Below are positions 10,262 to 11,380 of a stretch of DNA of 64,000 nucleotides, one piece after another (position 1 is the first letter of the stretch; each line of letters begins with the position of its first letter). The notes beneath the pieces are model-generated. The model saw only the letters and a program-made list of their open reading frames with translations. It was not told the origin of the DNA and did not search any database. Source of the DNA: Pseudisothecium myosuroides (taxonomy: Eukaryota > Streptophyta > Bryopsida > Hypnales > Lembophyllaceae); NCBI GenBank assembly GCA_951799445.1, contig OX637296.1, positions 11,966,001-12,030,000 of the forward strand, written 5' to 3'. The translations under genes and the position numbers were made by a program.

Positions 10262-11380
10262 TAAATCCATGGCCTAACTAATGAGATATTGCCTTTGAAA
10301 CTCGGTAATGCCAAGTGCCTGAGTGATGCCCGTTTGGAATCCCATAGTTCACTCTCGTTCATCTGCATTGGGTTCCACCATCTCTTCAGTGCGGGCGTCC
10401 CACACCAGCCCAGGTCCATTGTCCTCGAAGGCATAGAATCTTAAAAAGCTTACCAATGTTGGTAAAGCTCTTCGTGGCTCACCCTTGCGATTCACAATCG
10501 CAAGTGGTGCTTGGTCATCATGAAATACACGCCGTGGTGATCGATGAAGGTCCAAGATATCTTTCACATATACGTCAGGCCGCTCAATCCGTGGAATTAC
10601 TGCATGTAGTAGCTCAGGCGGCGTTAAATTGGTCCACCACAATTGTGGTCTGTGAGCTCTTGAACCAACCGCTGCTGCATCTATCAATACAGGAATCCCA
10701 AGCACACTGTGCACATGATGAAGACTTTCAAGCGTGCGGGTCTGAGATGTACCAACTATTAGTACATTCTCAATGATGTATCCCGGTGGCCACCGCTAAG
10801 ATGTCTGCACATACCGCAATATCTTCACCATGTCATGGAATTTTGAAGAACGCTTGTTCTTTAATCCATTTTGGTTGCCAGCTATAGACATACCTTGGCA
10901 TGGCCATCCCGCGATAACTAGATCCACTGATCCCAATTTAATAATGTCTTGGAGTGAGATTAGTGAAATGTCGTTTGGCGATGCAGAAAATGCGGTCGTG
11001 ATAGCGCCCGTATTCAACAACAATGGAAATGCAGGGCATAACCGCCGAGGATGGCGCTTGGCTACTTGTCGTGCCATGTCATCGTTATCTACATAAATAT
11101 AACGCTTCACTTTCATGCCCGCCTACAATACAGCCGCCAACCCGGTGTCAATGCCACCAAACAACTCCAAAAGAGTTATTCCTTCTTCTGGTGGTTTCCA
11201 CCGGATCGTTGAAGTGTCCAAAAGAGGACCTTCACTGTCCTCGCCTACAACCACTTCATCTTCTTTTGGTAACAACGATTGTTGCCACACCTCTTTGATA
11301 ACTTTGTTGGCAGCGTCTTGTAAACTCACGGTAGTCTTCCATGCAGCTTCTACGCCGGATTGGTACAACTCGCCCCCCAA
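10262..11380 (-). pseudogene. C5-cytosine DNA methyltransferase domain inside the retroelement
   Basis: One minus-strand frame, broken by stops at 11123-11125, 10796-10798, 10349-10351 and 10274-10276, holds the C5-methyltransferase motifs in canonical order. They are motif I LLELFGGIDTGL (SAM binding), motif IV AGWPCQGMS with the catalytic Cys, motif VI GYIIENV with the ENV triad, motif VIII GSRAHRPQLWWTN, then EPNADERE and TMGFQTG, and a motif X-like end. The order is not circularly permuted as in plant DRM enzymes. No BAH, chromo, UBA or PWWP domain is visible. The family transfers a methyl group from S-adenosylmethionine to carbon 5 of cytosine. It lies between the protease and reverse transcriptase. 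This copy cannot make a full protein because of its stops. Confidence 0.88.

What the first reader, a model, noticed from the sequence alone, without database searches (positions are those of the whole stretch)
10262..11380. A Ty3-like retroelement carries a C5-cytosine DNA methyltransferase between protease and RT
Seen directly: one minus-strand frame holds methyltransferase motif I (LELFGGIDTGL), IV (GWPCQGMS), VI (GYIIENV), VIII (GSRAHRPQLWWTN) and a motif X-like end in canonical order. A retropepsin-like segment lies on one side and a gypsy RT on the other. The gag parts share its frame. Established: retrotransposons that captured DNA methyltransferases have been reported from dinoflagellates and charophyte algae. 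Inference: this is a land-plant relative or a separate capture, and the element may have methylated its own DNA copies or altered host silencing. Canonical motif order argues against capture of a plant DRM gene.
Basis: partly seen in the sequence, partly recalled or inferred. Interest (0 to 1): 0.92.

Follow-up and report, generated by a model that had tools for sequence, protein, structure and literature searches.

The report
Plant jumping gene carrying DNA methyltransferase
The window holds a worn-out copy of a plant retrotransposon that carries its own DNA-methylating enzyme; better-kept copies lie in the same genome and relatives in a peat moss and two liverworts, whereas the published plant-lineage case was an alga.

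Summary
Confirmed and extended. The minus-strand frame at 10262-11386 is a DNMT3-type C5-methyltransferase (Pfam E 6.8e-11; nearest protein 64% identical, E 3.5e-156; predicted fold of a relative matches DNMT3A/B first). It lies between protease and reverse transcriptase of one retroelement, window 17697-9080, with shared termini, a TTGT target duplication and a pol deletion. This copy is dead, but 56 of 93 scored rows in its own genome are close kin; seven full copies (about 11 kb) each have 4-bp target duplications and the order gag-PR-DNMT-RT-RH-INT-PHD. Relatives occur in a 9.3-kb MAG contig and, as annotated proteins, in Marchantia, Sphagnum and Calypogeia; a second layout (DNMT between RNase H and integrase) occurs in chlorophytes. 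DNMT dN/dS is near that of PR and INT. Not found in print in ten searches: DNMT on the Gag side of a UAG-CAA-YY(A) stop, so probably made in Gag amounts; DIRS-like split repeats (A-coding-B-A-B) with integrase-type target duplications; bryophyte hosts. Closest known is KnitGypsy-Dnmt3 of Klebsormidium, which shares the split repeats. Most likely function, inferred only: methylating the element's own cDNA before integration.

The parts
9080..17697 (-). whole retroelement relic, 8618 bp, with termini TGTCATGAGAGTCGCG...TTTGTGCACGACA
   Evidence: exact 5' terminus and 1-mismatch 3' terminus shared with seven full genomic copies; three blocks at 84-92% identity to one copy
17698..17701 (.). target-site duplication TTGT (5' side)
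   Evidence: flank read
9076..9079 (.). target-site duplication TTGT (3' side)
   Evidence: flank read
17382..17697 (-). terminal repeat A (5' end)
   Evidence: 86.8% to A of L025, E 1e-106
12746..13639 (-). Gag part: MTTPYGGVDRG start at 13639 and a piece with a CCHC-like knuckle
   Evidence: start; zf-CCHC only E 0.49 in this decayed copy, below cut-off
11611..11910 (-). retropepsin-like protease
   Evidence: tblastn to L007 protease, 43%, E 1e-20; Pfam E 0.011, below cut-off
10214..11209 (-). DNMT3-type C5-cytosine methyltransferase core with in-frame stops
   Evidence: PF00145 E 6.8e-11 on one piece; 47% to L007 DNMT, E 9e-94; stops
9858..9866 (-). TAG CAA CTA: stop codon in readthrough-type context between DNMT and RT, in frame with the RT piece 9486-9797 (my count)
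   Evidence: TAG CAA CCA in ten other copies
9288..9689 (-). 5' part of Ty3/gypsy reverse transcriptase
   Evidence: tblastn to L007 RT, 60%, E 6e-47; Pfam gave no hit on pieces 9486-9797 and 9287-9553
9236..9275 (-). deletion joint: rest of RT, RNase H, integrase and PHD finger missing (2.8 kb of copy c38)
   Evidence: block ends
9080..9235 (-). second half of terminal repeat B (3' end)
   Evidence: 91.7% to B of L024, E 1e-60

Best explanation
It is a decayed, internally deleted copy of a multicopy Ty3/gypsy-type retrotransposon whose Gag-protease polyprotein ends in a DNMT3-type cytosine methyltransferase. Shown: order gag-PR-DNMT-stop-RT-RH-INT-PHD in other copies, termini, 4-bp target duplications, split repeats, constraint on the DNMT. 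Inferred: ribosomes mostly stop at the UAG, so the DNMT is made and packaged at Gag level, while readthrough gives a little Gag-PR-DNMT-Pol; inside or on leaving the particle the DNMT methylates the element's double-stranded cDNA; integrase then joins the cDNA to the chromosome by ends that lie within the repeat (B|GC|A), the A-coding-B and A-coding-B-A-B insertions being what one-repeat and two-repeat circles opened at that site would give. Incoming DNA that already bears 5mC would look like host DNA and be silenced softly rather than destroyed.
For: Domain order in eight of eight long copies, in the window as far as it reaches and in relatives. Eight of eight insertions with both ends, window included, have 4-bp duplications and shared ends. 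B|GC|A junction 15 times in the genome (up to one mismatch), reversed control 0, and 14 of 15 lie 3.77-4.59 kb 3' of a DNMT copy. UAG CAA YYA in 11 of 11 copies of this subfamily incl. window and in the distant L007; UAG CAA CCG in a third subfamily; the motif occurs at one further place in the eight long elements (L030, 5' leader). dN/dS (ratio of sums) of DNMT 0.35 (older-copy pairs 0.28) beside PR 0.27, INT 0.29, RT 0.20, RNase H 0.45 in these copies. DNMT3A best by profile (3.4e-20) and by fold (E 2.7e-18, TM 0.81 of target). CpG sites differ as TG/CA in 26.5% (74 of 279) against 9.9% (283 of 2848) at other C/G between copy c38 and the window copy, as expected of methylated copies.
Against: No activity, transcript, readthrough or methylation data. 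The window copy cannot make the protein. CpG decay would follow from host methylation too, and CpG observed/expected is the same in the window element and the rest of the window (0.67, 0.68). P0144 and P0148 have DNMT and RT in one open frame, so the stop is not universal. Motif IV is PCQ where DNMT3A and the host DRM have PCN. No tRNA primer site was recognised after repeat A. Young copy pairs have dN/dS up to 0.81. Host species unnamed.
Confidence: 0.72

Rival explanations
1. The methyltransferase is an unrelated host pseudogene into which, or beside which, a retroelement inserted.
For: The window copy alone is broken in several places.
Against: Eight of eight long copies have gag-PR-DNMT-RT-RH-INT-PHD in order; one 1357-aa frame spans gag-PR-DNMT in some; relatives in other taxa keep the order.
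Confidence: 0.01
2. Same element, but the DNMT acts on the host genome or on host silencing (for example pre-silencing new copies, or disturbing host methylation) rather than protecting its own cDNA.
For: Constraint on the DNMT; a PHD finger at the integrase end suggests a chromatin tie; made in Gag amounts it could act in trans.
Against: Nothing here separates targets; retention of the DNMT in cis within the polyprotein favours an action on the element's own cDNA.
Confidence: 0.25
3. Same element, but the DNMT domain serves as a nucleic-acid-binding or structural Gag extension and catalysis is dispensable.
For: Position in the Gag polyprotein; motif IV PCQ rather than PCN.
Against: W, C, E, N of the catalytic motifs are invariant and P, Q nearly so across 25 aligned relatives.
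Confidence: 0.08
4. Independent capture of a DNMT by the bryophyte-type elements, unrelated to the green-algal ones.
For: Different place in the polyprotein (PR|RT versus RH|INT); no cellular DNMT3 in the tree, so the two sets could have separate cellular sources.
Against: The 25 layout-I DNMTs in the tree form one branch (100/100, with P0104 of unknown layout) among 15 layout-II ones, though the branch joining it to the nearest layout-II row is weak (87/69); both layouts carry a PHD finger after integrase.
Confidence: 0.25

Closest known systems
KnitGypsy-Dnmt3 of the charophyte Klebsormidium nitens (de Mendoza et al. 2018, PMC5890265; abstract, passages and sections 9 and 11 seen)
   Same: Gypsy-type domains, unrearranged DNMT3-type enzyme in the coding region, repeats 'the same as that of a DIRS retrotransposon', purifying selection on the DNMT
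   Different: There the DNMT is said to be in the Pol polyprotein ORF and the acquisition to be of the K. nitens lineage; here it is on the Gag side of a UAG stop, in bryophytes and an unnamed streptophyte, with 4-bp target duplications and a PHD finger (the parts of the paper I saw mention neither).
SymbioDIRS-Dnmt3 and SymbioLINE-Dnmt of dinoflagellates (same paper)
   Same: Retroelement with a DNMT; the DIRS enzyme can methylate CG de novo (paper's result)
   Different: Other retroelement classes; the DIRS element has a tyrosine recombinase, these a DDE integrase
RT-RH-DNMT-INT-PHD proteins of green algae (Monoraphidium neglectum, Haematococcus lacustris)
   Same: Related DNMT (P0150 and four like it 35-39% to L007), Gypsy pol, PHD finger
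   Different: DNMT lies between RNase H and integrase; chlorophyte hosts
Plant DRM methyltransferases
   Same: DNMT3 superfamily
   Different: DRM has rearranged motifs; the host's DRM2-like gene (L016, E 5e-57) is separate
Chromoviruses of mosses (recalled; papers seen only as listing entries)
   Same: Gypsy with a chromatin reader at the integrase end
   Different: PHD finger instead of chromodomain; DNMT present; split repeats instead of ordinary LTRs

Membership tests
Ty3/gypsy retrotransposons | RT - RNase H - integrase order with rve core | tested here: met
   L007 ORF2: RVT_1 4e-31, RNaseH 2e-38, H2C2 1e-17, rve 1e-13; same order in eight of eight long copies; the window keeps part of RT only
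Ty3/gypsy retrotransposons | two ordinary direct LTRs | tested here: not met
   in five of seven full copies no direct repeat of 150 bp or more joined the two halves; two have A-coding-B-GC-A-B
Ty3/gypsy retrotransposons | integrase-type target duplication | tested here: met
   4 bp in 8 of 8 insertions with both ends
Ty3/gypsy retrotransposons | tRNA primer binding site | tested here: inconclusive
   sequence after repeat A (CTTGAAAAAG) has no TGG start (by eye)
DIRS retrotransposons | split direct repeats A-coding-B-A-B | tested here: met
   in 2 of 7 full copies; junction 15 times in the genome
DIRS retrotransposons | tyrosine recombinase instead of integrase, no target duplication (recalled in part) | tested here: not met
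   rve integrase; 4-bp duplications
KnitGypsy-Dnmt3-like elements | Gypsy pol plus DNMT3-type enzyme plus DIRS-like repeats plus constraint on DNMT | tested here: met
KnitGypsy-Dnmt3-like elements | DNMT within the Pol polyprotein ORF | tested here: not met
   DNMT ends ORF1, before an in-frame UAG, in this subfamily and L007
KnitGypsy-Dnmt3-like elements | sequence clade with the K. nitens element | not testable with these tools
   no K. nitens protein among the listed hits (120 of 146; 37; 120 of 176)
DNMT3 family | best similarity of catalytic domain | tested here: met
   DNMT3A 3.4e-20, DRM 6e-10, HaeIII 3e-7, DNMT2 1e-4; no DNMT1 or chromomethylase at E<=0.1; fold
DNMT3 family | motif IV PCN (recalled; seen in the DNMT3A row) | tested here: not met
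   PCQ nearly invariant
Plant DRM | rearranged motif order | tested here: not met
   I-IV-VI-VIII-X order in one frame

The most novel reading that the evidence does not exclude
A single old green-plant retrotransposon lineage, marked by a PHD finger and a captured DNMT3-type enzyme, spread through chlorophytes, charophytes and bryophytes; in the streptophyte branch the DNMT came to lie on the Gag side of a leaky UAG so that every virus-like particle is loaded with methyltransferase, and the element integrates from circles by an integrase that cuts an internal palindrome (GACA-GC-TGTC), giving permuted insertions without ordinary LTRs.
Probability: 0.4. Interest if true: 0.88.

Novelty: new variant of a known kind. 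Interest (0 to 1): 0.72.

Why it matters
A 2019 opinion (PMC6338049, passages seen) held that transposons encoding DNA methylases are absent from land plants such as tracheophytes, and built an argument on their loss; the 2018 discovery paper placed the capture in the Klebsormidium lineage. Here such elements are abundant in a DRM-bearing genome and present in bryophytes such as the model Marchantia, where culture and genetics make the old question, why a parasite would carry the enzyme that silences it, directly testable. The mixed DIRS-like ends and DDE integrase also pose a clear question about how these elements integrate.

Tried and rejected
Host-pseudogene reading: rejected by the copies. 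Bacterial or phage origin: 10 of the 11 loci (Streptomyces, IMG/VR) were 27-40% identical and were found partly because one scan pattern was IAGWPCQ; profile and fold both put DNMT3 first. DRM capture: rejected. Ordinary LTRs: looked for and not found. A primer binding site was not recognised. Captured LRR fragment at 15850-16278 (my first reading): no Pfam hit at E<=0.1. A tree with cellular DNMT3s could not be built (none fetched), so one versus two captures stays open. A search for RTs of this lineage without a DNMT (L007 RT against the own genome) did not complete, nor was the 5'-terminus pattern.

Print: the searches were (all ten allowed; open-licence PubMed Central only). Among what they listed I saw no paper on DNMT retroelements of bryophytes; I judged most entries by title and abstract start, and one search listed 19 papers holding the 2018 title phrase (the 2018 paper and its correction among them). 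[quoted passage not shown]), PMC6338049, PMC5382211, PMC12477816 (a 4mC/6mA-type methyltransferase in an algal DNA transposon) and PMC10538959. Subscription papers and preprints were not searched.

Full report
1. The observation. The minus-strand frame 11386-10262 reads with methyltransferase motifs I, IV, VI and VIII and a motif-X-like end in order, with four stops. Split at its stops, one of three pieces hits PF00145 at E 6.8e-11, the other two nothing. With X at stops the frame finds 146 proteins at E<=1e-3, 120 listed, best 64% identical over 99%. This is far beyond chance. RT lies at 9689-9288 and a protease-like part at 11910-11611, both matched to an open relative; Pfam alone gave no RT hit and only a sub-threshold protease hit.

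2. The whole element in the window. Comparison with other copies gives its limits: repeat A begins at 17697, repeat B ends at 9080, with TTGT on both sides. Against one genomic copy (c38 = L038/L039) it aligns in three blocks, 17697-16963 (84.5%), 15378-9276 (89.3%) and 9235-9080 (92.3%); 2.8 kb of pol is gone, and the 5' leader differs, as it does among the other copies. So the flagged MTase sits in a dead, deleted copy.

3. Copies in the same genome. The window is G000:C10:11966001-12030000 of a 388-Mb assembly. PF00145 gives 114 matches. The relative P0001 gives 93 scored matches out of 163 candidates: I count 56 rows at 56-71% identity (this subfamily; the window is one, two rows are halves of one place, and C105 repeats C6) and 37 rows at 41-52% (mostly other subfamilies; C2:31838941 and C3:34575905 may be decayed members of this one). 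I fetched ten places as 18-kb pairs: seven have both ends, one (L028/L029) lacks its 5' end, two (L032/L033, L036/L037) belong to another subfamily. The seven are 10.96-11.88 kb long with 4-bp duplications AGGC, AATC, GTGG, TTTT, GTGG, GAGA, TGGG (the first two read by eye past the alignment ends). They are mostly 94-98% alike. All eight of this subfamily show gag-PR-DNMT-RT-RH-INT-PHD in order; two further, shorter loci (L017, L018) show PR-DNMT-RT. The PHD finger of one copy scores E 6e-10.

4. Relatives elsewhere. L007, a 9285-base contig filed under a cyanobacterial MAG and probably contamination, has 127 identical bases at both ends, i.e. a circular assembly path. It holds an open 1162-aa frame with Gag-PR-DNMT (the frame runs off the contig start; its protease is below the Pfam cut-off) and, after one TAG, an open 1047-aa RT-RH-INT-PHD frame. 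A search for long proteins gave 37, among them Marchantia polymorpha (five: P0140, P0142, P0143, P0145, P0147) and Calypogeia fissa (P0138); one search listed Sphagnum troendelagicum (P0087, P0095), a second Calypogeia (P0059) and a sixth Marchantia protein (P0120). Of 274 proteins in hand, 43 are PR-DNMT, one PR-DNMT-RT, one DNMT-RT-RH-INT, one DNMT-RT, 107 show DNMT alone, 77 are RT-RH-DNMT-INT-PHD, and the other 44 are pieces or variants of that second layout. The second layout includes Monoraphidium neglectum and Haematococcus lacustris (176 proteins, 120 listed).

5. The stop codon. Between DNMT and RT stands TAG CAA CCA in ten of ten other copies of the subfamily and TAG CAA CTA in the window, in frame with the RT piece. 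These copies are close, so that alone says little. In L007 it is TAG CAA TCA, in frame with ORF2; in a third subfamily (L040, a decayed copy) TAG CAA CCG, followed by an open frame to the end of the fetched stretch. The flanking sequences of these three differ. In the eight long elements the motif TAGCARYYA occurs at this place and at one other (L030). UAG followed by CARYYA is the type I readthrough signal of plant RNA viruses (PMC5382211, passages seen). L040 departs in its last base. Proteins from other hosts end at recurring points after the DNMT (...GIQ...SATK...PSTD...SSSN), though the collection's length limits would have hidden fused proteins above about 2030 aa, and many ends in that list are likely contig ends. 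P0144 and P0148 are fused without a stop and branch early in the clade, P0148 on a long branch, so the stop may be derived.

6. The ends. L024/L025 and L026/L027 have A(325)-coding-B(345)-GC-A-B with A copies 100% and B copies 99.4-100% identical, hence recent; five other full copies are A-coding-B. In the whole genome the B|GC|A junction occurs 15 times (10 exact, 5 with one mismatch, reversed control 0), 14 of them in the right orientation 3.77-4.59 kb 3' of a DNMT, two of these in another subfamily. The A|B joint occurs 12 times with up to two mismatches (control 0), 11 beside a B|GC|A junction (my comparison of coordinates). L007 has the same junction, CACGACAGCTGTCAC. The K. nitens element is described with DIRS-type repeats and Gypsy domains (PMC5890265, section 9). 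My inference: A and B together act as an LTR of order B-A (purine-rich GAAGGGGGCGA lies just before B), and insertion happens by cutting at B|GC|A: one-repeat circles give A-coding-B, two-repeat circles A-coding-B-A-B. Later recombination between the B repeats could also give the short form.

7. The enzyme. A profile of ten relatives hits DNMT3A at 3.4e-20, DRM 6e-10, HaeIII 3e-7, DNMT2 1e-4 and no DNMT1 or chromomethylase at E<=0.1. AlphaFold2 on P0001 with 24 relatives gives pLDDT 78.5 overall and mostly above 85 in the catalytic domain; the 50 PDB matches printed all come from DNMT3 structures, best E 2.7e-18. W-x-C, E-N and H-x-x-R-x-x-W are invariant in 25 rows. The host has its own DRM2-like gene (L016, E 5e-57) and a MET1-like one (L042, my reading of the exons); DRM is restricted to streptophytes according to PMC12344493 (passage).

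8. Selection and age. Ten copies: median dS 0.061, dN 0.028; window against the ten: dS 0.17-0.26, dN 0.044-0.075, ratio 0.20-0.44 (codons with stops skipped; four of ten copies have a stop in the DNMT). Ratio of sums in these copies: PR 0.27 and DNMT 0.35 (ten copies), RT 0.20 (nine), RNase H 0.45 and INT 0.29 (eight). Close pairs show higher ratios (to 0.81), as expected of copies decaying after insertion. Between c38 and the window copy CpG sites changed 2.7 times as often as other C/G, pointing to methylation of old copies by whichever enzyme; CpG observed/expected does not set the element apart from the rest of the window.

9. Phylogeny. The tree has 44 rows: 39 of the 274 proteins, three DNA-derived rows and two Streptomyces enzymes; two fragment rows (P0151, P0152) were dropped. 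The 25 layout-I DNMTs plus P0104 form one branch with 100/100 support; layout II surrounds it, with the Streptomyces root on a long branch. No cellular DNMT3 was available, so this does not prove a single capture.

10. Verdict. The finding is real, larger than stated and well supported as to what it is. How it works is inferred. Known kind (DNMT-bearing Gypsy), hosts and arrangement that my searches did not find in print.

Noticed in passing
L036, L037 (G000:C10:257500-275499) and L032, L033 (G000:C7:11073000-11090999): A second subfamily, close to L007, has gag-PR-DNMT but no RT, RNase H or integrase match in the 9 kb downstream locus; near-identical stretches (98-99%) carry it, and similar DNMT hits lie on contigs C49, C105, C123, C217.
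   Followed up: partly
P0150, P0153, P0156, P0248, P0255 and many more: Green-algal-type Gypsy polyproteins with DNMT between RNase H and integrase and a PHD finger at the end.
   Followed up: partly
L007; P0036; P0226: Pieces of these retroelements are filed in bacterial MAGs (Synechococcales, Obscuribacterales, Minisyncoccia), a likely source of wrong annotation.
   Followed up: no
L012 (G000:C180), L013 and L014 (C110), L015 (C81): Small contigs of the assembly carry dcm-type cytosine methyltransferases (TIGR00675; above its cut-off only for L012; L014 not scanned), perhaps bacterial contamination.
   Followed up: partly
window 15379-16962: The 5' leader of the element does not match copy c38, matches four other copies only in its last 300 bases, and differs widely among copies, while coding parts stay alike.
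   Followed up: partly
window 3312-3623 and 5768-5981: Two short direct repeats with the same 170-base spacing (142 nt at 80%, 44 nt at 86%).
   Followed up: no
P0157 (Closterium sp. NIES-53): Weak DNMT match in a CCHC-bearing protein of a zygnematophyte, a possible charophyte member.
   Followed up: no
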